A stretch of DNA of 38,465 bases from Xylanimicrobium pachnodae JCM 13526 = NBRC 107786 (GTDB lineage: Bacteria > Actinomycetota > Actinomycetes > Actinomycetales > Cellulomonadaceae), in NCBI GenBank assembly GCA_001592145.1, contig BCWJ01000024.1:1-38465 (forward strand). Reading direction: 5' to 3'. Shown here one piece after another: positions 157 to 38,327 of the stretch (positions are counted from its first letter, which is position 1; every line of letters begins with the position of its first letter). The notes under the pieces are model-generated. The model had not been told where the DNA came from. It was given only the letters and a program-made list of their open reading frames with translations, and did no database searches. The position numbers were made by a program, and so were the translations under genes.

Positions 157-735
157 TTGTCCATCGACGTCAATGGCGCCTTGCACGACGACACGGGCCG
201 GTACGCCACGAACCCGCACGCGGCTCCCGGGTACGACCTAACCCTGTCGGACGATGAGTACAACGCACGCGGGACGGCCGCGTTCCCGCCTACCCCGCGG
301 TCAGCAGAGCAACACATCGCGTTCTGGAACACGGTCGAGATCCCGGACCGCATCTGCGCGAAGGCGCGGGACACGTATGTGCCGTGGCAGGTTGAGCAGT
401 GCCGGTTGCGGGCCGACGCCGCTGCAATCAAGGTGGCCCGAAAGTACTTCGACAAGCGCTACGTCGACGGCAAGTCCGTCGACTCGATCATCCGCGAAGA
501 AGTCGAACGGGTTTACGACCAGGCAGAACGCGACGAGTTCCCCTCGATGGAGCGCGCCTTGACACGGGACGTGGTCCGCGGATGCCTGATGCACTACTAC
601 TCCAGCACACTGCCCCCCGCGGAGCAGGAGATCGTCAAGAACTACCAGATGGTGGTCGGGCCGTGGCAACTCACGACCGAGCACCTGACCCGGTGGTTCG
701 CCTTCCACGCCTGGTGCGATGAGGTCATCGGGTGA
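157..735 (+). CDS. GALHD-tagged protein, unknown function (192 aa)
   Basis: The TTG start at 157 is chosen because AAGGAGG lies at 144-150 with 6-nt spacing and because the protein then begins with the tag, aligned without gaps to the other copies. Residues 2-28 are the tag, ending in GYDL. The body (about 45-192) is predicted to be mostly helical, with many Arg, Glu and Trp residues and no motif I recognise. It is the only plus-strand tagged gene besides the one at 23772, and the only first gene of a unit without a CCGGACAAG element just upstream. It may instead be co-transcribed with the partial gene before it. An upstream ATG at 79 would put the tag internally and is less likely. Confidence 0.85.
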   Translation: MSIDVNGALHDDTGRYATNPHAAPGYDLTLSDDEYNARGTAAFPPTPRSAEQHIAFWNTVEIPDRICAKARDTYVPWQVEQCRLRADAAAIKVARKYFDKRYVDGKSVDSIIREEVERVYDQAERDEFPSMERALTRDVVRGCLMHYYSSTLPPAEQEIVKNYQMVVGPWQLTTEHLTRWFAFHAWCDEVIG

Positions 736-753
736 GGTGCCCGAGAACCGCCG

Positions 754-2100
754 TCAGTCACCGACGTGAACGACCACCTGCTTGATGAACGAGGGCACCC
801 GAGCCGCACAGCGGGTGCTGTCGCGCTCCCCCGGGGGTCGGACCAGGCACGCGATGACCGGAACCCGCAGCGGGACTCTCGGCCAACCGGACTCCCCATC
901 GGTGACCACGATGACAAGATCCACGTCCTGACGGGCGGCCGCCTCGATCCCGAGCGCCATGTCGGTTCCGCCACGCCCAGCAACTTCCTGCAGCGACGCC
1001 CGCCCGCGGAACTGACGTACGGCGGCCACCTGGGCGTCCACGTCCAGCACGATCAAGTCTTTGCCCTTGATGCGCAGCGCGGCAGCGACCGTGATGATCT
1101 CCGCTGACGTCCTCTCCAAGTCTGCGCGAGACATGGACCTGGACGTGTCCCGCACCAACGCGACCCGGACCTTTGGGTTGGCGCGCCCGGGCAGGATCAC
1201 CTTCCTCCCGTCCACGCCCAAGGTGATGTTGTGGCGGCGCCGGTCGCGGCGCAGGTAGTCGGGGACAAGGGTGCCCGCCACGGTGTGCACGTGACGGCGC
1301 ACGAACGACCCGACGATGCGCCGCCACGGGGTCTTTGTCGGGGTCAGGACCATCGTGGCCCGCTCGACCAGCCCGGCGGGAACGGAACCGCGAGCCTTGA
1401 CGTACGCCTGAATGTCGGCGGACGCGTTGATCGCGGCGATGCGCCGTTCGACGGCGTCCGCAGCGGGGGCCGCACCGCCCAGCGAGTCGTCCTCCGGCAG
1501 TTCGCACGGGGCGGGTGCGCCGCCCGCGCCGGACCCACACCCGGCGTACCCGGGTCCGTCCGCGCTGGAGCCCTCGCCAGACCCGTCACCGGCGTGGTCG
1601 CCCTCATCGGTGCCGCCCCCGCCTCCAGGCGGTGGTGGGGGCATCTTGGCCAGGAGCGCGTCGTAGTAGTACATCCACGTCCGCCAGTCCGGTTCCCCAA
1701 TCCCGCTGGGGGTGATGAACGTGCCGTTGCCGAGGAACGTGCACCCGGCTGCGATCAGGTCGTCGTTGATGGACGCATCGGTGGCGTAGTTTGCAAGGGT
1801 CCGACAGGTGGCGGGCACCTCGAACTCGTCAGCCATTGTGGCGTGCTCCCCGAACAGGTGGGACACCTCGTGCAGCAGCGCCTGCGAGCACTCGTCAACA
1901 CCCCACCCCATCGAGGTCAGTGCCGCGAAGTCGATGTAGAGGCGGAAGAACTTGTCGACCGCCAGCGTGCCCAGCCCGGGGGCGTCCAGCACCCGGACCG
2001 CGAACAGGTAGGACGCCATGTACGGCATGCGGGCCAGCGCGGCGACCCGCGACGCGGCGAACTCGGCGATCTGCTCGGCGGAGGGTGGGCGCGGGGTCAT
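754..2100 (-). CDS. HExxH metallopeptidase-like plus VWA domain protein (DUF2201-type)
   Basis: This 448-aa protein has two parts. The N-terminal part carries HEVSH at residues 77-81, typical of the putative metallopeptidase domain of DUF2201 proteins. The C-terminal part is a von Willebrand A fold with a complete MIDAS site: DTSRS at 318-322, the Thr of GRGGTD near 379, and TDGES at 400-404. A run of five Pro and five Gly (154-163) and an acidic Gly/Ser linker join them. In this family the VWA protein usually works with a MoxR AAA+ ATPase; one is encoded at 7056-8174. The ATG at 2100 is preferred to an upstream start because it sits 6 nt after a CACATG box with GGACCA 16 bp further upstream, as in four other genes here. 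No tag. Confidence 0.85.
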   Translation of the reverse strand: MTPRPPSAEQIAEFAASRVAALARMPYMASYLFAVRVLDAPGLGTLAVDKFFRLYIDFAALTSMGWGVDECSQALLHEVSHLFGEHATMADEFEVPATCRTLANYATDASINDDLIAAGCTFLGNGTFITPSGIGEPDWRTWMYYYDALLAKMPPPPPGGGGGTDEGDHAGDGSGEGSSADGPGYAGCGSGAGGAPAPCELPEDDSLGGAAPAADAVERRIAAINASADIQAYVKARGSVPAGLVERATMVLTPTKTPWRRIVGSFVRRHVHTVAGTLVPDYLRRDRRRHNITLGVDGRKVILPGRANPKVRVALVRDTSRSMSRADLERTSAEIITVAAALRIKGKDLIVLDVDAQVAAVRQFRGRASLQEVAGRGGTDMALGIEAAARQDVDLVIVVTDGESGWPRVPLRVPVIACLVRPPGERDSTRCAARVPSFIKQVVVHVGD

Positions 2101-2106
2101 GCCCGT

Positions 2107-2134
2107 CATGTGGGGCGGGGTGTACGCGTGGTCC
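2107..2134 (-). promoter_or_regulatory. Promoter-like GGACCA-N16-CACATG, leaderless
   Basis: Reading on the minus strand, GGACCA (2134-2129) is followed after 16 bp by CACATG (2112-2107). Six bases later comes the ATG of the VWA gene, so transcription would start at or near the start codon. Both boxes match the best form of this repeated motif. Confidence 0.7.
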
Positions 2135-2135
2135 G

Positions 2136-2144
2136 CCGGACAAG
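2136..2144 (+). promoter_or_regulatory. CCGGACAAG element, copy 1
   Basis: Exact 9-mer on the plus strand, 42 nt before the NrdH-like gene. It lies beside the divergent promoter of the VWA gene, so both signal classes share one intergenic gap. Confidence 0.6.
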
Positions 2145-2186
2145 TGTCTGACACGTTCCTGTTCGCCTCGACCCGGAAGGCCTTCC

Positions 2187-2486: not shown

Positions 2487-2490
2487 CCTG

Positions 2491-3183
2491 TCAGTCCTCG
2501 TCCTCTTCGGCGTCGCGCACCCCGAGGTCGAACGCGCACGCGGAGCAGTACGCGTGCCCGCCCCGGTCGATCACGTCGATGTCCGGGGCGCCGCACCGTT
2601 CGCACCCCTCGTCTTGCGGGCCCGCGCAGTCGGCGCACAGGTCACCGACGAAGTCCTCGTCGCGCACCTCGTCCCCGCACTGCGCGCACCGCACGTCCAG
2701 GCATGGGATGAACTCGATGTCCTCGTTTGCGGGGACGGTGAGGTTCATCTGGTCGGTGAAGATGCGGGCGGTGCCGTCGGACCACTCCGAGACGCCGTCG
2801 ACGACGGCGTGCTCGTACTGAGCCGCCATCAGGTCGACGTCGTAATGCTCGTCGCGGGCCCCGTACCGGGTCAGCAGGCGTTCCAGGTCGACCCAGTCGC
2901 CGGGGACCAGGTCGGCGGGCTTGCCTCGCATCAGCAGGCGGGCGTCGTCGTACATCTTCGAGCGCTCCGCGAACGAGACCGCGTTCGCTTCCGCCCACGC
3001 CTCGATCGTGTCCCGCAAGGGCATGTCCCGGGCGGCGGGGGAGAAGTCGCCCGCGGCGATGCGTTCCTCGACGAACGGGTTCACTGCTGGGGTGCTCAGG
3101 TCGTACCCGGCGGCGGGCTGGCCCTGTGTGGCGTATTGGCCGTGCGCGTCGTGCAGCGCGCCGTGCGTGTCGATGGTGGGCAT
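2491..3183 (-). CDS. GALHD-tagged protein with two zinc ribbons (230 aa)
   Basis: Residues 3-29 are the tag. The middle (35-150) is mixed helix without a recognised motif. The C-terminus has four CxxC knuckles: CAQC 166-169, CADC 183-186, CERC 194-197 and CSAC 213-216. These should form two zinc ribbons, followed by an acidic tail. Zinc ribbons of this kind bind nucleic acid or protein, and which applies cannot be told. ATG at 3183 has GGAG just upstream and puts the tag at the N-terminus. It is the last of three tagged genes (6975 to 2491), each with its own CCGGACAAG element, so it may be expressed separately as well as by read-through. Confidence 0.88.
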   Translation of the reverse strand: MPTIDTHGALHDAHGQYATQGQPAAGYDLSTPAVNPFVEERIAAGDFSPAARDMPLRDTIEAWAEANAVSFAERSKMYDDARLLMRGKPADLVPGDWVDLERLLTRYGARDEHYDVDLMAAQYEHAVVDGVSEWSDGTARIFTDQMNLTVPANEDIEFIPCLDVRCAQCGDEVRDEDFVGDLCADCAGPQDEGCERCGAPDIDVIDRGGHAYCSACAFDLGVRDAEEDED

Positions 3184-3190
3184 GAGGTCT

Positions 3191-3230: not shown

Positions 3231-3234
3231 GTGG

Positions 3235-5109
3235 TTATCGGGTGTGGTGGCGGTGTTCGGTGCGCGGCCCGATCCCGGCCAGCGCGCCGAGCACGAACGC
3301 GCGGTGTTCCAGGTCGGGGGCCCGGCCTGCCACCCCGACCAGGCCGCCGTACTCCCCGGCGAAGATGGACTCCATGCCCACCGAGAGCACTTCGCGGTGC
3401 CCGGACGTGTATTCCTTGCCGACGTACTTCGAGACGAACCCGCCGTCGCGAGCGACTTCGGCGCGGGACCGGCCCGCGTACAAGGGCCGCAGCGGGGCGA
3501 GTCCGTCCTCGGTGGTGGCGCGGCGTCGCACGAACTCGGCTTCGACCGCCATGATGCCCGGCACGGTGGACTCGAACCGGTGGGACGACTCGTGCACGCA
3601 GGTTGCGAAGGTGCCGGACAGTCCGGCAGCGTGGGCCGCACCATCGTTCGTGGTGATCTCTGGGGCGGCTTCGGTCTCCACCGTCTGCATCCGGTACTTC
3701 GGGCGCCGCCAGTACGTGTGCCCGCGCTCCTTGTCCTCGAACTGCTCCCAGCCGCGCCCGCGCGGCGGTACCCCGTCGGGCAGGTCCTGAGTGGCCCAGT
3801 AGTCGGCGACCTCGTACTCCTTGCGCCGCCACATCGGTTCGGTCGCCGGACGGTAGCGCTTGGCACGTTCCGGGTCGTTCTCGCCGATCCACTCCCAGTC
3901 GGCGTATACCGTCTTGGTGTCCGCCCCGATCGCCAGGCCGTGCACCTCGGCGGTGGTCTGCCCGGTCCAGATGCCCGACTCCTGGACCCGCTGCTTGGTT
4001 TTGTGGGTGCGATGGTCGGTGTAGTGGGCGCGGGTCTTGGACAGTTTCGCGACCGGCGCCCCGGTGATGGCGGTGCGCTGGTTGGACGCGGCGACCCAGT
4101 CGGCGGGGAACACGCGCATCGCCTCCCCGAACGCGGCGACAGCGGTCTTGTGGGACCGGGCATGCAACTCGATCGCGCCACCCAGGTCGCGCACCTCACC
4201 GACCGCGCGGGTGTACCCGTCGGCCAGCGCCCGCAGGTCCTTCAGGGTTTGCGTATCTCGGCCCGCCTCGACCCGCCACACCTCGGTGTGCGCCTCGGAG
4301 ACCGCCTCTCGCAGTGGGCGTTCCCGTTCCGACTGCGCCCGCATGGTGCGGGCGTCCTCCTCGCGCGCGGCCCGCACGGCAGGGTCGTTGGTGACCTGCT
4401 CGCGGGCGGCGTCCAGACGGTCTTGGGCAGCGGCAAACGCCTGCCAGGCCGGGTCGGTGCGGTCGGACGCCTGCCGGGCCCGGTCCTGCAACCGGTCCAC
4501 CTCCTCGGACCGCTCGTACACCCCGTACCGGTGCCGGGCGTTCTCGCGGGCCTGCTGCCAGGCGGCGTTTGCGGACAGGTGCTCCGCGGTGTGCGCGTCT
4601 GAGGCCAGCAGGGCATCCAGGTCTGCCTGGGCGGCTTCGTAAGCCTCCTTCGCCGCCTGTTGGCGGGCCAGCCAGCCGTCGCGCACCTGTGATGCGGTGA
4701 TCCCAGCATGCGTCTCCGCGCGGGCCGCGACCGACTCGCCCAGGTGCACGACCGCCTGGTCCAGGGACCCGAACCTGTCGTTCAGCAGGCGGTCGGCTGC
4801 GTCCTGCGCGTCAGCGGCGGCGTCGCGGGTGCGTGCCGCCGCGGCCCGCCGTTCCAGCCACGCCGCGTGCTCGGGGGTGTCGCGTGGTGGGGCGGACGAC
4901 GCGCTCAAAGCGGCGGGCACGCCCCGGACCGGGGTGAGCGCGGTCGCGATGACCTCCCCCAACTGCCGGTCGTACTCGGGGTCTCCGAACGACGGCACCA
5001 CCACGACCGCGTTGTAGGGCCCGGCCAGGTCGTACCCGGCGGCGGCGTGCCCTTGGGTGGCGTACTGTCCGAGCCCGTCGTGCAGAGCACCATGCGCGTC
5101 GATCTTCAT
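3235..5109 (-). CDS. GALHD-tagged HExxH metallopeptidase-like protein, paralogue 1 (624 aa)
   Basis: Tag at residues 2-28. A long charged, Ala-rich region (about 60-330) is probably coiled coil. The C-terminal domain has HESSH at about 506-510 and, some 60 residues on, GHREVLSVGMES, whose Glu could be the third zinc ligand of a gluzincin-type site. HExxH domains with a downstream Glu occur in peptidases and in phage head-associated proteins; the substrate is unknown. It is clearly paralogous to the next gene (5137-6975), sharing SLDQAVVHLG, FGEAM.VFP.DW.AASN and the HExxH block, and likely arose by tandem duplication. ATG at 5109 is preferred because it starts directly at the tag. A GTG at 5118 would add MPG in frame. 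Confidence 0.87.
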   Translation of the reverse strand: MKIDAHGALHDGLGQYATQGHAAAGYDLAGPYNAVVVVPSFGDPEYDRQLGEVIATALTPVRGVPAALSASSAPPRDTPEHAAWLERRAAAARTRDAAADAQDAADRLLNDRFGSLDQAVVHLGESVAARAETHAGITASQVRDGWLARQQAAKEAYEAAQADLDALLASDAHTAEHLSANAAWQQARENARHRYGVYERSEEVDRLQDRARQASDRTDPAWQAFAAAQDRLDAAREQVTNDPAVRAAREEDARTMRAQSERERPLREAVSEAHTEVWRVEAGRDTQTLKDLRALADGYTRAVGEVRDLGGAIELHARSHKTAVAAFGEAMRVFPADWVAASNQRTAITGAPVAKLSKTRAHYTDHRTHKTKQRVQESGIWTGQTTAEVHGLAIGADTKTVYADWEWIGENDPERAKRYRPATEPMWRRKEYEVADYWATQDLPDGVPPRGRGWEQFEDKERGHTYWRRPKYRMQTVETEAAPEITTNDGAAHAAGLSGTFATCVHESSHRFESTVPGIMAVEAEFVRRRATTEDGLAPLRPLYAGRSRAEVARDGGFVSKYVGKEYTSGHREVLSVGMESIFAGEYGGLVGVAGRAPDLEHRAFVLGALAGIGPRTEHRHHTR

Positions 5110-5136: not shown

Positions 5137-6975
5137 TCAGGGCCGGGTGTCGCGCCGGTTCGCGGTTCGTTTTCCGAGCCCGGCCAGCGCGCCCAGCACG
5201 AACGCACGGTGCTCCAGGTCGACGCGATGGTTGGTGATCCCGATCAGCCCGCCGAAGTTCCCCCCGAACAGCGACTCCATGCCCATGCTGAGCACCTCCC
5301 GGTGCCCGGAGGCGTACTCCTTGCCGACGTACGGGTCGACGAACCCGCCCCGACGGGCCGCCTCGTCGGAACCATCCGCGTACAGAGGTTGCAGCGGGTT
5401 GACCACCCCGCCAGGACGGGTGGCGCGGCGGGTGACGAACTGCTGCTCAACCTTGGTGATACCGGGCACGGTCGACTCGAACCGGTGCGAGGCCTCATGC
5501 ACACACACCGCGTACGTTTCCGAGACGCCTTCCACCTGGGCGTCCTGACGGTTGGTGACGATCTGCGGGGAGTGCACGACCTGCACCCGGTCAGTCATGT
5601 ACGCCGCCCGCCGCCACACGGTTGACCCGTCGGGGGTCTGGTACTGCCGCCAGCCCTGGCCGTGCGGGCGCGCCCCGTCGGGGGTCGGGTCGGCCACCTC
5701 GTACCGGCGGAACCTCCACGTCGGGCGCGGCGTACCGGAGCCTGTGTCCTCGTGCGCAATCCATTCGTACTCGCCGCCCACGGTGGACAGGTTGCGTCCG
5801 GGCACCAGGTTCGGGTCCCAGTCGGTGCCCGCCCGCGTCTCGATGTTCGCCACCCGGGTGCGGTGCACGGTGGGGGTCCCGTCGGTGTAGTGCGCACGCG
5901 TCTTCTTGATGTGGACCTGCGGGGCGGTGGAGCGCACGTGCACGGGGCCGTCCGGGGTCTGACGCACCCATTCGCTGTCCGAGCGGCGGTTGGATGCCGC
6001 AATCCAGTCGGTCGGGAACACGGCCATCGCCTCCCCGAACGCGTGAACCGCTGCGCGCTGGGATGCGGGGTGCAACTCGATGGTGCCGCCCAGGTCGCGT
6101 ACCTCTTTGAGCGCCGCGGTGTACCCGAACGCCAGCCGGGCCAGGTCTGCCTGGGTGGTCGGGTCGGTCCCGGCGGCTACCGCCTCGGATGTGGACAGGG
6201 CGGCGAGATACGCGTCTTGGTAGTCCTGGTGCCTGGCCCGCTGTCGTTGTTTCGCAGCGGCCAGTTCACGCCAGGCGGAGCGCACGTCCGGGTCCGAATC
6301 GGCGCGGCGGTGAGCCGCCCGCAACGCGGCGTTGACCTCGGCAAGATGTGCGGCCAGGTCGGCCCGGTGCTCGCCGTCCTGCGCCACCTGCCGCTCCAGG
6401 TCGGAGGCCTGCCTGGTCAGGGCATCGACCCGGTACGTTGCGGCGGCGCGGCGGCGCGCCAGTTGGTCAGCCATCTCGTAGGGGGCGACGAACCAGGCGA
6501 ACTCGGGTGAGTGCAGGAAGTCCTGCAGGTCCTGCTGGGCCCTCTGCTTGTCCGCGTCGGCCAGTGCGGTCCGATCCTTCCAGTCGGCTCGAACCTCGTC
6601 CGCCGTGATCTCCGCGATCTTCTCCGCGCGGTACGCCACCGACCGGCCCAGGTGCACCACCGCCTGGTCCAGCGACCCGAACATGGCCGTCAGACGCTCC
6701 TCGGCCTCGCGTCGGGCGTTCTCGGCGGCGGTCAGTCGCTGCCGGTAGTCGTCCACCTCAGCGGCTGTAGGGGAGGGTCCGGGAGTGCCGCGCAGCGTCT
6801 CAGCGGACGGGGTGAGCGCCAGCCCGATGAGGTCCCCCAACTGTCGGTCGTACTCGGCGTCACCGAACTGCGGGGTCCCGCCTGACCCGGTGAGGTCGTA
6901 ACCCGGCTCCGTGCCAGCCGTGAGCGTGTACCGGCCCAGGTCGTCATGCAGGGCGCCGGTGCGGTCAACGATCAA
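5137..6975 (-). CDS. GALHD-tagged HExxH metallopeptidase-like protein, paralogue 2 (612 aa)
   Basis: The TTG start at 6975 follows GGGAGGAG with good spacing and begins the tag; no other start does both. A predicted coiled coil occupies about 70-260. The C-terminal domain carries HEASH at about 493-497 and GHREVLSMGMES about 60 residues later. Sequence resemblance to the 3235-5109 protein extends from the tag to the C-terminus and is strongest in the last 150 residues. The two catalytic-type motifs are both intact, so this is not a decayed copy. Two active copies in tandem suggest two substrates or a heteromeric assembly. A role in processing other tagged proteins is possible but not shown. 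Confidence 0.87.
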   Translation of the reverse strand: MIVDRTGALHDDLGRYTLTAGTEPGYDLTGSGGTPQFGDAEYDRQLGDLIGLALTPSAETLRGTPGPSPTAAEVDDYRQRLTAAENARREAEERLTAMFGSLDQAVVHLGRSVAYRAEKIAEITADEVRADWKDRTALADADKQRAQQDLQDFLHSPEFAWFVAPYEMADQLARRRAAATYRVDALTRQASDLERQVAQDGEHRADLAAHLAEVNAALRAAHRRADSDPDVRSAWRELAAAKQRQRARHQDYQDAYLAALSTSEAVAAGTDPTTQADLARLAFGYTAALKEVRDLGGTIELHPASQRAAVHAFGEAMAVFPTDWIAASNRRSDSEWVRQTPDGPVHVRSTAPQVHIKKTRAHYTDGTPTVHRTRVANIETRAGTDWDPNLVPGRNLSTVGGEYEWIAHEDTGSGTPRPTWRFRRYEVADPTPDGARPHGQGWRQYQTPDGSTVWRRAAYMTDRVQVVHSPQIVTNRQDAQVEGVSETYAVCVHEASHRFESTVPGITKVEQQFVTRRATRPGGVVNPLQPLYADGSDEAARRGGFVDPYVGKEYASGHREVLSMGMESLFGGNFGGLIGITNHRVDLEHRAFVLGALAGLGKRTANRRDTRP

Positions 6976-7021
6976 CGTCGTCTCCTCCCGTCGGGTCGAC
7001 GCAGCACCTCACCGGGGTGCA

Positions 7022-7053: not shown

Positions 7054-7055
7054 GT

Positions 7056-8174
7056 TCACACGGCCAGGGCCAGGCCCGCGGTCTGCATCCGGGAGATGAG
7101 GTCACCGAACGCTTCGCTGGTGCCGCGCGGCATGCGCGTCCCGGGTGGCATCTGCGCGAGCAACCGCTTCGCGCCCGGGGTGGCCACATCCGGCTTGCCG
7201 TCCTGCGCGCACGCGATCATCACCTGCATGCCCTGCTTCCACGCTTCCGTGTCACCGTTCTGAGCCAGGGTGCGCACCGCGGAGACGATCGCGAACAGGC
7301 GGTCGGGACGCTCGGAACGCCACTTGACGATCGACGGGTCGGCCATCACGTCCCGGGCGTCAGGCAGGTCGGCGTTGCGTGCCCAAGCCAGGTACTCGCT
7401 GGCCGCGGCCTCTCCCACGCACCCCTTCAAGAGGAGCAGTCGGGCGGCGTCGTCCCGCGCCTTGAGGTGCGCGATGGCGTGGGCGGCGTTCGTCCACGAC
7501 CGCGGGGTCGGGAAACCCTTGGACTGCCGAACCAGGTCGGATGGGATACGGGAGCGCTGCGCGGCGTGAGCCTTCAAGAACCCGACGATCGATGTCATGG
7601 TGCGCAGGTAGTTGTCGGCGACCTCGCTCAGGCGGCACAGCACGCGGGCCATGTCCGGGGCGGTGGTGTGACGGAAATCGTCCAAGGCGGCTTCCGCCCA
7701 CTCCTCGAAGTCGAAGTGCCACGCGATGTGGCAGAACCGGTTCGCGACCGGGGCGGGCAGGTCAGCGCCGTCCACGGCCACATCAACCGGGTTGGAGATC
7801 GCGACGATCGAAACCGTGCCGGGCAGGTCCGCTTCCCCGACGACCCGTTCTTGGACGATCCGCATGCTGATCCCGAACGTCTCCGAGGTGGACGCCAGTT
7901 CGTCGATGACGAGCAGGCCAGCGTCGGCGGTTTGCAGGCGACGCACCCACTGCGGCGGGGAGTAGACGACCTCCCCGTCGCGTTCGACGGGCATCCCCAT
8001 GAAGTCGCCCTTGTCACGGGACGCGCCGGTGACGACCTCCACGTGACGGTCCCACTGCTCGCCCCACGCCGTGAACGACGCGGTCTTGGTTTCGCCGGGC
8101 ATGCCCTCGATGAGGACCGGGACGTTGGCGCGGACGCAGGCGGCGATGGCGCGCTGGCTCGGGTGGGTGCTCAT
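7056..8174 (-). CDS. MoxR-type AAA+ ATPase (372 aa)
   Basis: A Walker A loop, GMPGETKT, lies at residues 24-31 and a Walker B, LLVIDE, at 87-92. A conserved SNP turn near 128-130 is in the sensor 1 position, and a helical C-terminal half follows. This is the MoxR layout: a hexameric ATPase that remodels or inserts cofactors into partners, usually with a VWA protein. The likely partner is the DUF2201-VWA protein at 754-2100, but three tagged genes lie between them, which is unusual. The start at 8174 is 6 nt after a CACATG box with a perfect GGACCA 16 bp upstream. An in-frame ATG inside that box (8183) would add MPG and is judged part of the promoter. No tag. Confidence 0.85.
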   Translation of the reverse strand: MSTHPSQRAIAACVRANVPVLIEGMPGETKTASFTAWGEQWDRHVEVVTGASRDKGDFMGMPVERDGEVVYSPPQWVRRLQTADAGLLVIDELASTSETFGISMRIVQERVVGEADLPGTVSIVAISNPVDVAVDGADLPAPVANRFCHIAWHFDFEEWAEAALDDFRHTTAPDMARVLCRLSEVADNYLRTMTSIVGFLKAHAAQRSRIPSDLVRQSKGFPTPRSWTNAAHAIAHLKARDDAARLLLLKGCVGEAAASEYLAWARNADLPDARDVMADPSIVKWRSERPDRLFAIVSAVRTLAQNGDTEAWKQGMQVMIACAQDGKPDVATPGAKRLLAQMPPGTRMPRGTSEAFGDLISRMQTAGLALAV

Positions 8175-8180
8175 GCCTGG

Positions 8181-28718: not shown

Positions 28719-30827
28719 TCAGGAGGTGGCGGTGTCCGCCGTCGTGTCGGCACCGACCAGGCGTGCAACATACGGCTTGGTCTTGCCTGACCAGTACGTG
28801 TCGAGAATGTTCGAGTAGCGCGGGCCGCTGCTTCGGCTGCCGTCGGAGTTCGGGGCGAGCGAGAGGATCGACTCGTACGTCATCTCGACGCCGTTCTCGA
28901 CGCCCGCATACATCGCGACGTGGCTAACCATTCCGCCCGGACCGCCTTGCGAGAAGAAGATGAGGTCGCCGGGTTGGCGTTGCGCGTACGGGACGGACGC
29001 GAACAGGGGCCGGGACCCTTCCGGGCGGGCCATCGCCTCCTCATACGTCAACGCACCGCTGCGCGGGTCGGCGTACGCGGCGTACTGACCCGCCGAGTTA
29101 CGCACCATCAGGTTGCTGCGCCCGGAGGCGGGCAGTGGGTTGGCCACCGCCCCGGCTTCGGACAAGGCGGTCAGGTAGGCGTATTGCACCAGCCCGGAGC
29201 AGTCGATGCCGGAGTACAAGGTGGGGTCGTTGCAGTAGGGCCCGGACGAGCACTGCTCGTAGTGCAGCCCCGGCTGGTCGGACACCGCCTTGGCAATGGC
29301 CAGGGCCCGACCCACGACCCCTCCCACACTGCCGCTGACCCCGCCGCACAGCGTCGCGGCGCCCCCGTCGAGTACGAGGAACGCCCCTGCGGGGTCGCTG
29401 GGGTCGGGTTGGACGCCAATCTTGGCCCCGGTCAGCCCGGTCACGATCGCGACCGCCTTGTCGAACTGGGCGAGGTAGTTGAACCCGGCTGGTTTGCCGT
29501 TCTTCCCGGTCGCGAACGACCCCTGCACCGACTGGGCGACGATCCACGGCCAGTACGTGTCGAACCGGCTCGTGGGTGTGGCGTTGATCTTCACCTTGCT
29601 GGCGTTCGGCAGGTTCGTGAAGTGGGCGTCCAGGCCGGGGGCCCGCAACCGGTCCAGGAACTTCCCGGCAGCAATGGTTGGGTCCATGCGTTCGGCGGTG
29701 CTACCCCACGAGGCCCGCTGCTGGAACAGGCCAACCGAGTCCCTGTCACCACCCGGGTTGTTGTTCAGACCCGATTCGGTCAGCACGACCATGATCGAAA
29801 TGACCGCGTCGCGCACGTCCCCGCCGTTGGCCACGGCGGCAGCGATGACCGCCGAAGCGTTAGCGGTCTGCGCGTCGTTGAGTCCAACCCCGGCTGCCGT
29901 CCCGCTCACCGTCGTGGTCGCCGCGCAGAGCCCTTCGCGGGCGCCCGGCGTTTCCTTGCCGAGCACCCACGCCAACGCGGTGGCGTAGACGGACTCGGCC
30001 TGCGCATTGTCCAGCGACAATGGGACCTTCGGGCTTGAGAGGGCCGCCACCCAAGCGTCGTGGACCTCCTGCGCGTCATCCGCCGCGCCGGGATCGACCC
30101 GCCACGCATCATCGGGTGTGGATGCGGACGCGAGCGCGACGTCATAGGCGCCGGTGGCGTCGTCAGCGAGCACCCCGCGCAACAGCGGAAGGTCTGAGGG
30201 GCGCTGCCCGGACACGTCTCCGATCGCGTCCGTCAGTGCGCCAAGCAGCGCGCGTCCCGACACCTCGACGTCCGCCAGTCCGTCCGCGTCCAAGGACGAT
30301 CCGACCAGCCCGAACACGTTGGCTCCGTTCTGGGAGTCGTCCGCGTGGGGCCGGGCCGCGATGGCGGCAAGTAACTGCCAGTCGACACCTGCGTCGCTGG
30401 CCAGCGCTCGGATCGTGTCCAGGTTGTCCACGATGCTGTCCCCGGTCAGCGCCGCCTCGACCACTTGGGCGGACGTGGTTTCCACGCTGCCGCCGCGCGC
30501 GGCGACCACCGTCCCGACCACCACCGAGTACAGGGCATTGGCCATGAACATGACGTAGAACAACTGGACCACAACCGCGATGGCGATGATGCGGCGCACG
30601 ATCTTGTTGCGCAGCAGCCCGACGACCCCGGCGACCACGTTGCCGGACGCGATCTTGGTGACCTGCTTGCCTACGTCCGCGGCCTGCTTGGCGACCGCCG
30701 CGGCGCGTGCCCCGGCGGCACCGAACGCGCCGTTCGAGGCGGCCCGGCCAGCGGCCCGGCCCATCCCGCCGCGCCGCTGGGTAATGCCCTTCAACGAGGG
30801 AAGTTTCGTCAGGCGGTCGGCGGGCAA
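28719..30827 (-). CDS. Membrane-anchored peptidoglycan hydrolase, transglycosylase-like plus NlpC/P60 (702 aa)
   Basis: The TTG start at 30827 has AGGAGG 6 nt upstream. A basic N-terminus leads to a transmembrane segment at about 78-108. A lysozyme-like domain has its probable catalytic Glu at 351 and SVGLFQQR at 364-371. The C-terminal NlpC/P60 domain has DCSG with Cys543 and the catalytic His636 in SHVAMY. Such two-enzyme, membrane-tethered hydrolases (CwlT, TcpG) open the cell wall for conjugation channels in Gram-positive elements; the same pair also occurs in phage entry proteins. No GGACCA-CACATG pair is visible in front of it, so it may be read through from the SSB gene. Confidence 0.85.
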   Translation of the reverse strand: MPADRLTKLPSLKGITQRRGGMGRAAGRAASNGAFGAAGARAAAVAKQAADVGKQVTKIASGNVVAGVVGLLRNKIVRRIIAIAVVVQLFYVMFMANALYSVVVGTVVAARGGSVETTSAQVVEAALTGDSIVDNLDTIRALASDAGVDWQLLAAIAARPHADDSQNGANVFGLVGSSLDADGLADVEVSGRALLGALTDAIGDVSGQRPSDLPLLRGVLADDATGAYDVALASASTPDDAWRVDPGAADDAQEVHDAWVAALSSPKVPLSLDNAQAESVYATALAWVLGKETPGAREGLCAATTTVSGTAAGVGLNDAQTANASAVIAAAVANGGDVRDAVISIMVVLTESGLNNNPGGDRDSVGLFQQRASWGSTAERMDPTIAAGKFLDRLRAPGLDAHFTNLPNASKVKINATPTSRFDTYWPWIVAQSVQGSFATGKNGKPAGFNYLAQFDKAVAIVTGLTGAKIGVQPDPSDPAGAFLVLDGGAATLCGGVSGSVGGVVGRALAIAKAVSDQPGLHYEQCSSGPYCNDPTLYSGIDCSGLVQYAYLTALSEAGAVANPLPASGRSNLMVRNSAGQYAAYADPRSGALTYEEAMARPEGSRPLFASVPYAQRQPGDLIFFSQGGPGGMVSHVAMYAGVENGVEMTYESILSLAPNSDGSRSSGPRYSNILDTYWSGKTKPYVARLVGADTTADTATS

Positions 30828-30975: not shown

Positions 30976-31461
30976 TCAGAAGTCGTCGTCGTCGTCGAAC
31001 GCAGCGGCGGCCTTACGGCTGGCACCGGCGCGAGCCTTGGCCTTGGGAGCCGGAGCCTCGTCCTCGTCGTCGTCCTGGGCCGGACGCTTGGCCTTCCCGT
31101 TCGACGCGTTCGCCTTCTGGTTGCGCTCCACCTCGACCGTGGCCCAGCGCAGGTCGGGGCCGACCGCGGTGGCGGTGAAGGAGACCCGGATGATCTTCTT
31201 CCCTTCACCGTCGATCTCGACGGCCTGCTCGTAGGTGTTCACGCGACCCAGCACGACGAGTCGTGTCCCCTTCTTGAGGGACTCGACGACGTTCTCGGCG
31301 AGGGTGCCCCACGCGGTGAAGTCGAGGAAGTGGGTGACCTCGTTGTCCTCACCGCGCTGCTCGGACACGGCCAGGCGGAACGTGGCCCGCGGAGTCTGAC
31401 CCGACTTGCTGCGCAGAACGGGGTCGGCGGTCAGGTTGCCGACAAAGGTCTGAGTGTTCAA
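30976..31461 (-). CDS. ssb: Single-stranded DNA-binding protein
   Basis: A 161-aa SSB. The TTG start at 31461 follows GGAAGG. The OB fold spans about 1-110 with the usual RLAVSEQR, HFLDFTAWGTLAENV and KGTRLVVLGR blocks. A charged linker follows, and the acidic tip ends AFDDDDDF, the C-terminal peptide with which SSBs recruit partner enzymes. Plasmid- and phage-encoded SSBs are common. It has no tag, so the tag is not a generic feature of this element's DNA-metabolism proteins. Confidence 0.95.
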   Translation of the reverse strand: MNTQTFVGNLTADPVLRSKSGQTPRATFRLAVSEQRGEDNEVTHFLDFTAWGTLAENVVESLKKGTRLVVLGRVNTYEQAVEIDGEGKKIIRVSFTATAVGPDLRWATVEVERNQKANASNGKAKRPAQDDDEDEAPAPKAKARAGASRKAAAAFDDDDDF

Positions 31462-31573: not shown

Positions 31574-31969
31574 CTATGACCTGCGAAAACCGAGCCCAGC
31601 CATAACGGCGGTGATACGGCGCACCTCCGGGTCTGCGTCCAGCCGCCGGGCGTCTTCGTCGGACAGGTCCCAGCCACGCCGCGCAATGGCCCGCACCAGG
31701 GGGTCCGGGTCGTTCGCGGCGCGAGACGCAACACCCGGATACGGGGTGGATGCGGCGGCCAGTCGAGCGGTAACCGGGGCGGTGGGGGAGGACATGGCGA
31801 TCAGTTCCTCGTAGGAGACGTCGGGGGCGCTCGCCCGGAGCGCTGCGGGGACCTCGCGCGGTTGGCTGCCTGCGGGTGCGGTGAGGTCGTACGAGACCGC
31901 CGGTCGGCCCTGTGTCGAGAACTGGCCCCGTCCATCGTGCAGGTTGCCGTGGGCGTCAACGGTCGTCAT
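31574..31969 (-). CDS. GALHD-tagged small protein, unknown (131 aa)
   Basis: ATG at 31969 lies inside the end of the upstream gene (14-nt overlap), so translation is coupled. The tag is diverged, with Asn at block position 7, Phe at 15 and SYDL at the end. The body is short, with Pro-rich and helical parts (ARRLDADPEVRRITAVMAGLGFRRS at the C-terminus, cited by its Arg-rich nature). No family recognised. Second gene of the operon 33020 to 31574. Confidence 0.83.
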   Translation of the reverse strand: MTTVDAHGNLHDGRGQFSTQGRPAVSYDLTAPAGSQPREVPAALRASAPDVSYEELIAMSSPTAPVTARLAAASTPYPGVASRAANDPDPLVRAIARRGWDLSDEDARRLDADPEVRRITAVMAGLGFRRS

Positions 31970-33020
31970 CGGTGCGCTCCTTCTGGGTCGGGCGGACGCG
32001 CCGGATCGTCGCGTCGGTGACCGCCGCGTCAAAGAACTTGTGGGCCAGTTCCGCGTGCTGCTCAAGGAAGTTGACGACCTGGCGCTGCTCGGACGCGGAC
32101 CGAGCCCCGAACGTCGCGGTCAAGATCGCGGCGGCACGGGCCTGCGCGGCGCCGGTCTCCCACCAGTCGTCCACGACCCGCATCACATCGGCGGCGTTCG
32201 GACCGACCATGGTTCGCAGTGCTCGCGCTCGCGTCTCGGTGAGCGTCTCGGCGGCGGTGAACGGCATGTCGAACGTCTTGGCGGTCAGTAGCCACTTGCC
32301 GCGCTTCGCGTTCGGGTCCACCGTCACGTCCTCGCCGCTACTGTCTGCGGCGGCCAGGGCAACCGACTCGGCTGAGGGGGCGTAGTCCTGGTACATGCCC
32401 CGGGCGTTCGCATCCACCTCGTTGCCTGTCAACCCCCGGGTGACCTTCGCGGAAACCCCAGAGCGGTGGAACCCGAGCGGGGGGCGGTTCCCGGGCGGGA
32501 ACCCGTCGCGGATCGAGGTGGCGGCCGCGTCTTCCTCGGACGTTGTCATCTCGCGGCCAGTGCGTGCCGCGAACGTTCGGCGGGCCGCGGCCAGCGCCGA
32601 CCACGCACGCACAGTCTGCCGGTTGACCCGCATGTAGTCCTCCGGCGGGCGGCCCTGCCGCACCGCTTCCAGCGCGTTCGACTGCATGTTTCGGGCGACT
32701 GCCCACACCCACGCGGGGGTGATCTCGCGCACCTTGTTCGCCCCGCCCGCCCCGGCGGACGCCCTGACGATCTCCTCGGCCAGGGAGGACTCCATGTCCG
32801 CGGACCAGTCGGTGCCGCCGACGCCCCGCCCAAGGCTGCGAGACGCGCTGGCCGCCGCCTTGAGCAGGCCGCGCAGGTGCGCCACATCGGACGGGTCGGA
32901 CCAGTCCACGGCCCGCGGGTGTGCGGGCGCGCCCGCGAGGTCGTAGGTGGCAGTGGCCGAGCCGTCGGAGGCGTACTGGCCCAGTCGGTCGTGCAGGGCT
33001 CCGTGCGCGTCGATCTTCAT
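31956..33020 (-). CDS. GALHD-tagged helical protein, unknown (354 aa)
   Basis: Tag at 2-28. The body is strongly helical and Ala/Arg-rich. A middle region (about 120-200) has the layout of helix-loop-helix with REITPAWVWAVARNM and FAARTGREMTTSEED, loosely like sigma-factor or HTH-type regions but without a clear motif. ATG at 33020 has GGAGG upstream. It has the longest distance of all to its CCGGACAAG element (86 nt). If it is a DNA-binding regulator it could control one of the two promoter classes here; that is speculation. Confidence 0.84.
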   Translation of the reverse strand: MKIDAHGALHDRLGQYASDGSATATYDLAGAPAHPRAVDWSDPSDVAHLRGLLKAAASASRSLGRGVGGTDWSADMESSLAEEIVRASAGAGGANKVREITPAWVWAVARNMQSNALEAVRQGRPPEDYMRVNRQTVRAWSALAAARRTFAARTGREMTTSEEDAAATSIRDGFPPGNRPPLGFHRSGVSAKVTRGLTGNEVDANARGMYQDYAPSAESVALAAADSSGEDVTVDPNAKRGKWLLTAKTFDMPFTAAETLTETRARALRTMVGPNAADVMRVVDDWWETGAAQARAAAILTATFGARSASEQRQVVNFLEQHAELAHKFFDAAVTDATIRRVRPTQKERTDDDR

Positions 33021-33830: not shown

Positions 33831-34367
33831 ATGACGTATCGACTAATCGCGGCGGACGACACCACCACACGTCCTACCGCAGACGAGCAGTTCGTGCTCC
33901 TGTATCCGGGCGGCGGGGAGATGGTCGTCGCCCCGGACCGCACCGGCCTGGTCGAAGCGCTGATCCCCGGATACGAGGACCTCGGCGACGACCAGGAAAG
34001 CACCGAGGAAGCGCTTTACCAGCGCTACCTTGCCGCCCGCAACATCGCGGCCCAGGTGTCGGAGACGATCTTCGCGTCCCTGGTCTCGGAGGGGAAGGTC
34101 GACTATGCCGACTACACCGAGGACGAACTCAACACGATCATGCCGCACGGCGCGTTCGAGCCGTCCCCGCCGTTCGTGGGGGAGTGGACCGACCGGGTCC
34201 CGCTGGTGCTGATCCGCACGAACTACGCACCGTTCTCCGCGCTGGACGTGCCCGAGGGCAACGTGCTGTTCGTGGACCCGTACTCCGAGACGACGTTCCT
34301 GGACAGCCTGGACAACCTGGGCCTGATCAAGGTGCTGGTGCGGGAGGACTCGGACGTCGACGCCTGA
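33831..34367 (+). CDS. Acidic protein of unknown function (178 aa)
   Basis: ATG at 33831, 8 nt after the stop of the putative leader peptide; AGAAGG lies inside the leader's end. The protein is very acidic, with a Gly-rich turn (YPGGGEMVV), Asp/Glu-rich stretches and a C-terminal VPLVLIRTNYAPFSALDVPEGNVLFVDP block that looks like a compact alpha/beta core. No family recognised, no tag. A hairpin at 34394 follows the gene. Confidence 0.82.
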   Translation: MTYRLIAADDTTTRPTADEQFVLLYPGGGEMVVAPDRTGLVEALIPGYEDLGDDQESTEEALYQRYLAARNIAAQVSETIFASLVSEGKVDYADYTEDELNTIMPHGAFEPSPPFVGEWTDRVPLVLIRTNYAPFSALDVPEGNVLFVDPYSETTFLDSLDNLGLIKVLVREDSDVDA

Positions 34368-35118: not shown

Positions 35119-35142
35119 ACAGGAATAGGAACAACGCGACCC

Positions 35143-36183: not shown

Positions 36184-36198
36184 CTCTCTGGAGAACAC

Positions 36199-36528: not shown

Positions 36529-36542
36529 CCTCATGCGGGCAC

Positions 36543-36585
36543 GCGCTACGCCCCGGCCACCGTCACGGTGACCGGGGCGTAGCGC
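36543..36585. terminator. Bidirectional terminator hairpin
   Basis: 14-bp perfect arms GCGCTACGCCCCGG (36543-36556) and CCGGGGCGTAGCGC (36572-36585), with an inner CACCGT/CGGTG stem, lie between the convergent stops at 36528 and 36594. It can serve both genes. Confidence 0.8.
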
Positions 36586-36593
36586 TGTGAGGC

Positions 36594-38327
36594 TCAGTTC
36601 CAGAACAGCGACCACGCCTTCTCGCCGGGACGCCACGGCACCTCCGTGCGCCGCATGCTCGGCATGCCCGCCGCTTCATCGAGCCCGTACCGCTGGCTCA
36701 GCACCGGCCACGCGTGCCCGGCGTCGTCGGGCAGCGTGTCGTCAAACACGAGCACCTCATCGACCGAGACCCGCTCGTCGCTGCGGTCTGGGCCGACGAT
36801 GTACCCGCCCACCTCGACCTTACCGGGGTGCTCGGCGGCGGCCGCCAGCAAGGTCGCCACCTTGGGGGAGTCACCCTGCCGGTCCGCGAGGTTCCCTGCG
36901 GGCAGGGCAGTCAGCAGGGTTCGGGCCGTCTCGGCGGTGACACCCGCGTAGTCCACCACCCCGCGCTCACCGTTCGTGTACGTCTCGCCGGGCGCGCCGA
37001 ACAACTTCGGGGCGAACGACTTGGGGCAGTACATCGAGGACGTGTTCGCCGCCAGGGTGGGGGAGACCGCGACGGTGAACCCGGGCTGCCCGAACGTTCC
37101 GGCCTGCCGCGCCGCCGACTCGTGCGCCCACCGGTCCAGCGTGGCGGTCAGGTCGATCGTCTTGGTGCCAGGGCGGGCGGAGGCATGCCGGGCGACCGCC
37201 GGGGTGGGAGCGGTCTCGGGTGCCGGGCGGACCGGGGCGGGGGAGGACGAGGTGCGGGCGTGCTCAGGGCGTGGCGGTACCGCTTCGGCACCGCGCGCCG
37301 CCGCGTACCAGGCGCCCAGGTCCGCCAGGTGGGCGGCGACCATCCGGTTGTGATCCGTCTTGTCGGCGGGCGCGCGCAGGTGCTGTGCGCACTCGTGGGG
37401 CCCGTCGGCGGCCTTGAACCGTCCGCACTTGGTGCACCGCTGCGCGTCGGTGCGCCTGCTGGTCAGGCGGCCCTCCTTGACCCCGCCCTTGATGTTGCGG
37501 TTGTACGCGGCGCCGGGGGAGTCGGCGGTCACGACCGCGCGGAAGTCCTCGAACGTGGCGCCCTGGTACTCCCAGGTGCCGGACGCCATTCCGACGACCA
37601 TCGTGTGGGTGCGTTCGTCGTAGCCGACCGCGGTCAAGAAGGTGGACTGCACGTCTCGGGTGTAGCCGGTGCCCATGTGGGCGCGGCGTTCGGCGCGACG
37701 CGCCAGGACTCCGTTGACATCGGTGGGGTGCGAGGATCGGCGACGCGACTCCAAGGCGCAGTTGACCGTCTCGGCGACCACGTCCCCGTCGAGCCCCTTG
37801 AACCCGAGCGGAGAGACCGTCCACCGGCCTGGACCGTTCTTGGTGACCCGGACCCAGCCCTGCACCGACCTGCCGTTCATCGTCGCCGAGACCGGCACGT
37901 CGAACGTGCCGCCCTGCTCGTCGGCGAACCGGTTCAGTGCCGCCTTGGACGGCATCCGCACGGTCACCCCGCCGACGGTGTGCTTGGTGCGTGAGGTGCG
38001 CCGGTTCCCCGACAGCGCCAACCCCTCCCGCATCGACGGGGTGTAGTCGTCGGGCATCTGCGGGTAGTCGCCGCCCTCGCGGTTGTATTCCGCCTGAGCG
38101 CGCAACGTGTCCCACCAGTCAGCGCGGCGCCGCGTGGTGTGCGCCTCGACGATCGCGGTGCGGGCCACGGGAGGGGTGAAGCCCCGCAACTGCGCGGCCC
38201 GCTCCGCGATGAACTTGTCGATGGCGCCACGCCCCGACCCGGTCATGTCGAACTGGGGTGCGGAGAACGCCGCACCGGCGAACAACCCTGCATCGTCGTG
38301 GAAGTTGCCACGCACGTCGATCTTCAC
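36594..38327 (-). CDS. GALHD-tagged KTSC-domain protein (577 aa)
   Basis: GTG at 38327 has GGAGG upstream and begins directly at the most diverged tag (Phe at block positions 8, 15 and 25, Met at 27). A KTSC domain, a small fold often linked to RNA or nucleotide proteins, lies at about 228-280 (YDERTHTMVV, then GTWEYQGATF, then SPGAAYNRNIKGG). A CTKC to HEC cluster at 298-313 may bind zinc. The C-terminal region carries the same domain as the 20893-22161 protein (GYIVGPDRSDERV). All three modules look intact. Function unknown. The CCGGACAAG element is 40 nt upstream. Confidence 0.85.
   Translation of the reverse strand: MKIDVRGNFHDDAGLFAGAAFSAPQFDMTGSGRGAIDKFIAERAAQLRGFTPPVARTAIVEAHTTRRRADWWDTLRAQAEYNREGGDYPQMPDDYTPSMREGLALSGNRRTSRTKHTVGGVTVRMPSKAALNRFADEQGGTFDVPVSATMNGRSVQGWVRVTKNGPGRWTVSPLGFKGLDGDVVAETVNCALESRRRSSHPTDVNGVLARRAERRAHMGTGYTRDVQSTFLTAVGYDERTHTMVVGMASGTWEYQGATFEDFRAVVTADSPGAAYNRNIKGGVKEGRLTSRRTDAQRCTKCGRFKAADGPHECAQHLRAPADKTDHNRMVAAHLADLGAWYAAARGAEAVPPRPEHARTSSSPAPVRPAPETAPTPAVARHASARPGTKTIDLTATLDRWAHESAARQAGTFGQPGFTVAVSPTLAANTSSMYCPKSFAPKLFGAPGETYTNGERGVVDYAGVTAETARTLLTALPAGNLADRQGDSPKVATLLAAAAEHPGKVEVGGYIVGPDRSDERVSVDEVLVFDDTLPDDAGHAWPVLSQRYGLDEAAGMPSMRRTEVPWRPGEKAWSLFWN

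What the first reader, a model, noticed from the sequence alone, without database searches (positions are those of the whole stretch)
157..38327. One ungapped N-terminal tag shared by 21 predicted proteins with unrelated bodies
Seen directly: 21 proteins begin with the same block of about 27 residues. In the block, Asp3, Gly6, His9, Asp10, Gly13 and Asp26 are identical in all 21 copies; position 2 is Ile/Val/Leu, 8 is Leu or Phe, 15 and 25 are Tyr or Phe, 27 is Leu or Met. There is not a single insertion or deletion. What follows is completely different from protein to protein (peptidase-like, nuclease, DUF262, zinc ribbon, KTSC, OB-like and unknown). Linkers rich in Gly, Pro, Ser or Asp often follow. 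The tag is hydrophilic, so it is not a Sec or Tat signal. Inference: it is an address or docking signal. Options are packaging into a particle or capsid, export through a type IV channel with the DNA, sorting into a protein compartment, or docking on one shared partner. The genes start at the tag, so it is not an accident of domain fusion within one family.
Basis: partly seen in the sequence, partly recalled or inferred. Interest (0 to 1): 0.95.

Follow-up and report, generated by a model that had tools for sequence, protein, structure and literature searches.

The report
Shared address tag on plasmid proteins
Dozens of otherwise unrelated proteins made by large plasmids of certain actinobacteria carry the same short detachable end-tag, which looks like an address label read by the plasmid's own gene-transfer machine, perhaps so that these helper proteins travel with the plasmid into a new cell.

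Summary
In detail: 21 window proteins start with one ungapped ~27-residue block, and the shared DNA ends sharply at the block's edges. The genome has 38 copies. The block is one lineage's form of a wider tag: G-x-[FY], often a basic or polar residue at +7, [EDA] at +9, often [PA] at +10, a hydrophobic residue (mostly Leu) at +14 or +15. It marks 6.5-9.3% of called genes on three Micrococcales plasmids read whole, and occurs on other plasmids and on chromosomal contigs. 220 tags scored N-terminal; in four proteins (three orthologues) a tag sits at the extreme C-terminus, ending on its final Leu. Tagged proteins almost never have membrane segments (1 of 220, against 366 of 1682 untagged). Tags keep company with a conjugation-type module (VirD4-like ATPase, an unclassified 458-aa protein, NERD protein, FtsK-like ATPase): 9 of 10 plasmid records with the 458-aa protein carry tags. 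Best reading: a portable sorting signal read by the element's transfer machinery, probably for co-delivery of establishment proteins into recipients. The paper searches named below showed no description. Encapsulin and HK97-capsid families were not found on the tagged plasmids searched.

The parts
157..240 (+). tag 1; body resembles tagged W01 362856 (by eye); its blast hit W04 315210 was called untagged
3097..3183 (-). tag 2; C-terminal zinc-ribbon-like Cys pairs (by eye)
5026..5109 (-). tag 3; body with an HESSH (HExxH) region that matches four phage families, one of them annotated minor head protein (E 6e-4)
6892..6975 (-). tag 4; body like that of tag 3 (by eye; both hit the same Mycolicibacterium protein)
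9615..9707 (-). tag 5; unknown body
10586..10672 (-). tag 6; unknown body; tag DNA 94% identical to tag 7, flanks at chance
11521..11607 (-). tag 7; unknown body
12623..12709 (-). tag 8; body with tagged homologues in pACHL01 and three other Arthrobacter-type plasmids
13498..13584 (-). tag 9; zinc-ribbon-like body (by eye)
14594..14680 (-). tag 10; unknown body; its two weak homologues in Arthrobacter-type plasmids were called untagged
17317..17409 (-). tag 11; PD-(D/E)XK DUF3799 / exonuclease VIII-like body
18797..18883 (-). tag 12; body resembles that of the tagged gene on contig C43 (by eye)
20051..20137 (-). tag 13; zinc-ribbon-like body (by eye)
20807..20893 (-). tag 14; DUF262/GmrSD_N body
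22078..22161 (-). tag 15; unknown body
23772..23858 (+). tag 16; weak DUF4258-like body (below cut-off)
26679..26765 (-). tag 17; phrog_2319-type body, tagged in Microbacterium and Curtobacterium, untagged homologues in four comparison plasmids
27674..27763 (-). tag 18; unknown body
31883..31969 (-). tag 19; body with tagged homologues in three Arthrobacter-type plasmids
32937..33020 (-). tag 20; family shared with Microbacterium, three Arthrobacter-type plasmids and G270; the pACHL01 member shows a weak sigma-70 region 2 match (below cut-off)
38244..38327 (-). tag 21; KTSC body, homologues tagged in three Arthrobacter-type plasmids
754..2154 (-). untagged gene shared with the plasmids: DUF2201 metallopeptidase/VWA-like
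7056..8183 (-). untagged gene shared with the plasmids: MoxR-type ATPase (by homology to an annotated MoxR gene)
14764..16044 (-). untagged gene shared with the plasmids: AAA/helicase-type ATPase
28719..30827 (-). untagged NlpC/P60 protein (candidate cell-wall hydrolase)
30976..31461 (-). untagged single-strand DNA-binding protein
33831..34367 (+). untagged small protein whose family was found in 11 of the 16 other elements

Best explanation
The block is a short linear sorting signal of a family of large conjugative-type plasmids and chromosomally placed relatives in Micrococcales. It is added, as a DNA cassette running from the start codon to the last tag codon, to soluble plasmid proteins whose bodies are unrelated. 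It is read by a component encoded by the same element, most likely the VirD4-like coupling ATPase or its partners (458-aa protein, NERD protein, FtsK-like ATPase). The likely purpose is to bring the tagged proteins to the transfer channel and send them, with or beside the plasmid DNA, into the recipient, where nucleases, a DNA ligase, peptidase-like proteins, a Fic protein and a DUF262 protein would help the plasmid settle. Shown: portability, terminal position at either end, near-restriction to proteins without membrane segments, general conservation on orthologous bodies, co-occurrence with the module.
For: Terminal and portable: 220 N-terminal tags among 1963 proteins (1492+50+200+221) of tagged elements and 0 among 175 of comparison stretches; of 6 matches elsewhere I judge one true. 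One orthologous soluble family has the tag at its C-terminus in three elements, each ending on the tag's Leu, plus one small membrane protein; this speaks against an RNA leader or an N-degron. Cassette: up to 94% DNA identity inside the tag with flanks at chance. Soluble cargo: 1 of 220 tagged against 366 of 1682 untagged proteins have a hydrophobic segment, p=1.5e-20. Kept on orthologues: reciprocal best hits, own genome vs pACHL01, 3 both tagged, 0 discordant, 32 both untagged. Linked module: the 458-aa protein is in 10 of 72,556 plasmid records, 8 of them exactly the records found by the generic tag query; of the other two, read for this test, Glaciihabitans has tags and Euzebya shows none. 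In 396 genomes of the order, tag and 458-aa gene co-occur, p=1.4e-6, 2.5e-5 without the source genome. The window's genome has a VirB4-like ATPase and a VirD4-like one whose homologues are annotated as a T4SS DNA-transfer protein or match TraG-D_C below cut-off. Of 41 tagged proteins scanned with Pfam (21 of 21 in the window, 10 of 17 elsewhere in the genome, 10 of 48 in pACHL01), 8 match above cut-off: DUF3799, GmrSD_N, KTSC, SprT-like, NAD ligase, PolyA_pol-HD, Fic, DUF2958. Conjugation systems carry many proteins (PMC8406263, PMC11288057, passages).
Against: No transfer experiment and no partner prediction. The Euzebya plasmid has a distant module but no tag in the 100 kb of 571 kb read. 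Two genomes of one genus (G114, G379) have the module and no tag in 57 and 80 kb, apart from two weak six-frame matches in G114 that I judge chance. Five genomes without the full-length 458-aa gene have one or two tag-profile matches that I did not read. Discordant orthologues: 7 of 184 pairs for W01/W03, 5 of 187 for W01/W04, 7 of 344 for W03/W04, and a ligase tagged in W01 and W03 but not in Microbacterium; several look like start-codon or cut-off errors of mine. Two window bodies (157, 13589) have weak homologues called untagged. Two of the four C-terminal tags (W01, W04) score under my matrix cut-off and rest on motif and homology. Tagged lipoprotein-like proteins (C30, W04 218226) are odd cargo. 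Nearness of tags to the module is not significant under circular shifts (p 0.23, 0.06, 0.15). F-plasmid substrates tested in PMC11288057 use C-terminal or internal signals.
Confidence: 0.5

Rival explanations
1. The tag docks soluble proteins on one shared plasmid-encoded hub inside the donor (a transfer, partition or replication assembly), without export.
For: The tag need only be exposed in the cytosol: it also occurs on membrane proteins (Curtobacterium C-terminal case; lipobox-like proteins). Lineage-specific spellings suggest co-evolution with an element-encoded reader.
Against: The donor-side machinery that I looked at (DnaE-like and ParA-like by eye, SSB, gyrase-like, VirB4-like and VirD4-like) is untagged; known cargo looks like establishment proteins.
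Confidence: 0.27
2. The tag loads proteins into a particle or protein compartment (phage-like head, encapsulin-like shell).
For: Works like capsid-targeting or cargo-loading peptides (recalled): short, terminal, on proteins without membrane segments.
Against: No encapsulin-family match in 7 of 7 and no HK97-capsid match in 6 of 6 plasmid records; the 3 capsid matches of the window's genome lie on C1 and C12, which carry no tag. No match in 50,697 phage records by tblastn with two tag forms. Other shell folds untested.
Confidence: 0.1
3. The tag is a degradation or regulatory handle for a protease/unfoldase.
For: Terminal peptides at either end can serve as degrons (general knowledge).
Against: A host-encoded reader would be expected to be conserved, yet the spelling changes between lineages and the tag follows one transfer module.
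Confidence: 0.07
4. The block is a 5-prime translation or RNA leader, or a hitch-hiking 5-prime DNA repeat without protein function.
For: Shared DNA starts at the start codon; same-residue codons differ in 30% of pairs against 40% expected, so copies are more alike in DNA than codon use alone predicts.
Against: C-terminal copies in three orthologues and one membrane protein; conservation of the protein motif across lineages with different spellings.
Confidence: 0.03

Closest known systems
Protein substrates of conjugative type IV secretion systems (F-plasmid 'conjutome')
   Same: Many plasmid and chromosomal proteins are passed to recipients through the coupling ATPase (PMC8406263, PMC11288057: passages read).
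   Different: [quoted passage not shown] here one consensus tag marks up to about 9% of a plasmid's genes, mostly N-terminally, in a Gram-positive order.
Polyvalent and other early-phase effector proteins of conjugative elements and phages (PMC5512222: passages read)
   Same: Overlapping type of cargo: metallopeptidase-like, ParB-like, nucleases, modifiers.
   Different: Those proteins are multidomain and no common terminal address is described in the passages that I read; here mostly single-body proteins share the tag.
Phage capsid-targeting sequences and encapsulin cargo peptides (recalled)
   Same: Short terminal peptide sorting unrelated proteins.
   Different: No match to the one encapsulin and one capsid family tested; sequence unrelated as far as I recall.
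Shared N-terminal trafficking domains of polymorphic toxins (recalled)
   Same: One trafficking part, many bodies.
   Different: Those are folded domains with C-terminal toxins; here about 20-27 residues that can sit at either end.

Membership tests
T4SS-translocated substrate set | Element encodes VirB4-like and VirD4-like ATPases | tested here: met
   VirB4-like on C40 of the window genome, split by an insertion (AAA_10 in the query homologue); VirD4-like C20 81627-84101 by homology to an annotated T4SS DNA-transfer protein and TraG-D_C below cut-off. That C20, C24 and C40 are one molecule is inferred
T4SS-translocated substrate set | Signal exposed to the cytosol on soluble proteins | tested here: met
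   1 of 220 tagged with a hydrophobic segment; terminal position
T4SS-translocated substrate set | Coupling-protein-dependent transfer into recipients | not testable with these tools
   needs a transfer assay
Polyvalent proteins | Several disparate domains in one polypeptide, delivered early | tested here: inconclusive
   LPD1 (E 0.006, below cut-off) in one tagged protein; of 41 scanned, 33 show no domain above cut-off
Capsid-targeted phage proteins | Element has capsid genes | tested here: not met
   PF05065 absent from 6 of 6 plasmid records; other capsid folds not tested
Encapsulin cargo | Element or host encodes an encapsulin shell | tested here: not met
   PF04454 absent from 7 of 7 genomes/records, controls positive in 3 of 14
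Sec/Tat signal peptides | Hydrophobic core at the N-terminus | tested here: not met
   tag region enriched in Q, P, G, H and depleted in L, V, M and W relative to bodies

The most novel reading that the evidence does not exclude
A plasmid-wide protein address code: large Micrococcales plasmids mark from nine to about fifty of their own soluble proteins with an interchangeable terminal tag read by a dedicated, plasmid-specific receptor at the conjugation channel, so a whole establishment proteome is delivered with the DNA, and tag and receptor spellings diverge together between plasmid lineages.
Probability: 0.45. Interest if true: 0.95.

Novelty: new variant of a known kind. Interest (0 to 1): 0.87.

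Why it matters
If true, the tag would be the first consensus, readable signal for conjugative protein delivery that I know of: it would predict the delivered proteome of a plasmid from sequence alone, turn many 'hypothetical proteins' into candidate establishment or counter-defence proteins, and give a ready signal for a direct transfer assay. Even if the tag only docks proteins in the donor, an interchangeable address on up to about 9% of a plasmid's genes is unusual and testable.

Tried and rejected
Exact window tag elsewhere (counts include the own genome): 3 of 149 relatives, 2 of 396 in the order, 1 of 396 in the phylum (in only 20 candidates per genome were scored), no confirmed viral contig. 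A degenerate pattern in genome contigs gave 15 stretches, of which I judged 2 real (L094, L096) and 13 chance from their position and reading frame. This made the tag look almost unique until the Microbacterium and body-homologue leads showed the wider form.

Clamp-binding motif: considered from memory, spacing does not fit. Type IV pilus genes (C30) as partner: their homologues are in the Arthrobacter-type plasmids but not in my Microbacterium hits, which have tags. Nearness of tags to the module: Fisher test positive (p 1.4e-3, 1.2e-3, 5e-4), circular-shift test not, so not used. Structure of one tagged protein from a two-row alignment: mean pLDDT 53; residues 1-57 are nearly all under 50 and the first domain starts at 56, but residues 190-354 are as low and the model is poor; tag alone mean pLDDT 70, pTM 0.28. 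G207 and G340 have the 458-aa gene without the other three within 80 kb; G261 and G049 have partial or weak hits and were not read. Pfam does not name the 458-aa protein; a resemblance to Replic_Relax was a memory lead only.

Limits: genes were called by my own simple script, not by a standard program. The tag matrices were trained on N-terminal hits that they then score, from 202 of 203 first-round hits chosen to have Phe/Tyr at +2 and Leu/Ile/Val at +14 or +15, so those columns are partly circular; counts elsewhere and in controls are not. W02, W05 and W06 were scored over about 40 kb only. In one search the pACHL01 count stopped at 50 candidates, and matches there are six-frame, not all checked for position. 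The loose C-terminal scan printed 9 rows, of which I judged 3 to be tags. Paper searches that showed no description of such a tag: (listings only; no paper met the terms), 60 for pACHL01 (listing only).
Full report
THE OBSERVATION. The window is the whole of contig C24 (38,465 bases) of a 4.0 Mb, 79-contig genome. A genome of the same genus corresponds to a Cellulomonadaceae MAG. The 21 tagged proteins are real: the alignment is ungapped through the block, with invariant D, G, H, D, G, D, and the strict pattern never occurs in 200 shuffled proteomes. The profile of the 21 finds 38 copies in the genome: 21 on C24, 12 on C20, 2 on C33, and one each on C30, C32 and C43. The two C33 copies have a one-residue insertion, and one C20 copy has HG for HD.

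IT IS A CASSETTE. Between copies, mean DNA identity rises from about 0.3 near the start codon and falls back to 0.38 and below just after the last tag codon, with 0.35 to 0.94 per 6-base bin inside. Two neighbouring genes share 94% of tag DNA with flanks at chance. Same-residue codons differ in 30% of pairs against 40% expected from contig codon use, which suggests partly recent copying.

THE WIDER TAG. The exact block is nearly absent elsewhere in what I searched. Two leads opened the family. A pattern scan hit Microbacterium esteraromaticum, where 13 proteins on the 220 kb read of a 222.5 kb contig score as tagged, many of the form ID..GN(I/L)HD..GRFDGH.R(T/S)E.E..L. And body homologues of window 24639-26765 led to Curtobacterium plasmid pS16, where 14 of 50 proteins in 41 kb form one N-terminal cluster. 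A generic form at E up to 10 then hit 8 of 72,556 plasmid records (best E per record 2e-4 to 0.8), with up to 31 places in one record, and no phage record. In whole records, a 33-row profile at E<=0.01 finds 50 (candidate limit reached), 38, 27, 36, 48 and 21 matches in six plasmids and 1, 0, 1, 0 in four comparison plasmids that share a body. Aligned on the core glycine, the lineages share Gly at 0, Phe/Tyr at +2, often a basic, His or Gln residue at +7, Glu/Asp/Ala at +9, often Pro/Ala at +10, and a hydrophobic residue at +14 (176 of 202) or +15. Each lineage has its own spelling.

POSITION. With matrices per lineage at score 10 or more, 220 of 1963 proteins of tagged elements carry the tag near the N-terminus: 153 of 1492 in five Arthrobacter-type plasmids (three whole, two over 40 kb), 16 of 50 Curtobacterium, 13 of 200 Microbacterium, 38 of 221 in the window genome's six contigs; 0 of 175 in the comparison stretches. 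Six matches of that score lie elsewhere; the four scoring 11 or more were shown, of which I judge one convincing: the C-terminal end of a small Curtobacterium membrane protein. A looser scan printed nine rows, of which I judge three tags: that protein, and a soluble family with the tag at its extreme C-terminus in Arthrobacter zg-Y1110 and G345; a blast of these found the pACHL01 orthologue, all three ending on the last tag residue. The zg-Y1110 and pACHL01 copies score under the matrix cut-off. The tag therefore looks like a self-contained terminal peptide, not a 5-prime leader.

WHAT CARRIES IT. Among proteins of 60 residues or more, 1 of 220 tagged and 366 of 1682 untagged have a 19-residue hydrophobic segment (p=1.5e-20). 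The exception, and by eye the tagged protein on C30 and those of the related MAG, have a lipobox-like segment after the tag. Of 41 tagged proteins scanned with Pfam, 8 match above cut-off: DUF3799, GmrSD_N and KTSC in the window (21 of 21 scanned), SprT-like elsewhere in the genome (10 of 17 scanned, one of them in part), and NAD-dependent DNA ligase, PolyA_pol-HD, Fic and DUF2958 in pACHL01 (10 of 48 scanned). LPD1 and a sigma-70 region are weak leads below cut-off. One HExxH-bearing body matches four phage families at E 2e-5 to 8e-4, three of unknown function and one minor head protein. Of ten window proteins scanned against PADLOC, only the DUF262 one matches. phrog_2319 aligns from residue 58 of its window member, after the tag.

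CONSERVATION ON ORTHOLOGUES. Reciprocal best hits (E<=1e-8, coverage 40%): window genome against pACHL01, 3 pairs both tagged, 32 both untagged, none discordant (p=1.5e-4); against W03 3, 29, 0; against Microbacterium 2, 15, 0; Microbacterium against W01 1, 25 and 1 discordant, against W03 1, 23 and 1; W01 against W03 15, 162 and 7; W01 against W04 16, 166 and 5; W03 against W04 26, 311 and 7. Several discordant members carry recognisable tags under my cut-off or have a doubtful start. So the tag mostly stays with the body while its spelling changes. Homologues of one body on four comparison plasmids lack it.

THE MODULE. In the window genome, C20 58-73 kb carries twelve tags; one exonuclease-like gene further lie an FtsK-like ATPase with a homing-endonuclease-like insert, a NERD protein, a 458-aa protein and a VirD4-like ATPase. 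The same four genes occur in pACHL01, both Arthrobacter plasmids read whole, Microbacterium, Glaciihabitans, G345, G051, G296, G372 and G425, three of the four in G270; all four also in G114 and G379, which show no tag, and distantly in Euzebya. A tblastn with the 458-aa protein hits 10 of 72,556 plasmids: the 8 tag plasmids, Glaciihabitans and, weakly, Euzebya. I read the last two expecting a tag variant in both: in Glaciihabitans 9 proteins form a new spelling (H.R...G.F.DK.QSAPE..L), in 100 kb of the 571 kb Euzebya plasmid there is none. In 396 genomes of the order the 458-aa profile matches 13 (11 over most of its length) and the tag profile 10, with 5 of the 11 in common (Fisher p=1.4e-6; 2.5e-5 without the source genome). 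Reading around the gene revealed another spelling (RKRDTGE.GN.G[EQ]FG...R.(E/D)A.V.V) in three genomes of one genus. Counting genomes with at least three of the four module genes, 7 of 9 have tags. One or two tag matches without the full-length 458-aa gene occur in 5 genomes that I did not read. A VirB4-like gene is on C40 of the window genome.

READING. A terminal, portable signal on proteins without membrane segments, mostly kept on orthologous bodies, spelled differently in each lineage and tied to one conjugation-type module, is best explained as a sorting signal read by that module. Since conjugation machines pass many proteins to recipients (PMC8406263 and PMC11288057, passages read) and mobile elements ship early effectors (PMC5512222, passages read), delivery into the recipient is the most likely purpose. 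The docking step I hold at about 0.85, delivery at about 0.5. No capsid or encapsulin of the two families tested lies on the tagged plasmids searched. A model of the tag alone has mean pLDDT 70 with only short bridges, and a whole-protein model is too poor to judge.

NOVELTY. The paper searches named under Tried and rejected showed no description; the library holds open-licence papers only. The kind (one sorting peptide, many bodies) is known; this signal, its element family and its either-end use were not found described.

Noticed in passing
C20 59489-60808 of the window genome (L011/L012), between tagged genes: A 439-aa RRXRR + HNH protein, the architecture that I recall for IscB-type nucleases, sits inside the tag cluster.
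   Followed up: partly
C-terminal ends of FtsK-like proteins (pACHL01, zg-Y1110, Paenarthrobacter stretch), the pACHL01 NERD protein, a 155-216-aa protein in three plasmids and a 990-aa pACHL01 protein: Shared acidic C-terminal ends of the form DDxDPFA, reminiscent of SSB tails (recalled); a second possible short docking motif.
   Followed up: partly
C20 73317-78875 and C40 about 5966-10345 of the window genome: The FtsK-like and VirB4-like genes are interrupted in frame by insertions, the first with LAGLIDADG/homing-endonuclease matches, so possibly inteins.
   Followed up: partly
window 754-2154, 7056-8183, 14764-16044: DUF2201/VWA, MoxR-type and AAA-helicase genes recur on the three Arthrobacter-type plasmids and on Mycolicibacterium pJCM12272, which shows no tag in the stretch read.
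   Followed up: no
C32 9696-13352, C33 13178-13990, C20 53816-58628 of the window genome: DnaE-like and thymidylate-synthase-like genes (named by eye) have homologues on the giant plasmids; gyrase-like genes on C20 (GyrB matches Pfam) have none in my hits.
   Followed up: no
L018-L020 (same-genus MAG) and C30 25416-26144: Tagged proteins with an internal lipobox-like segment (by eye), a possible membrane-anchored member of the tagged set.
   Followed up: no
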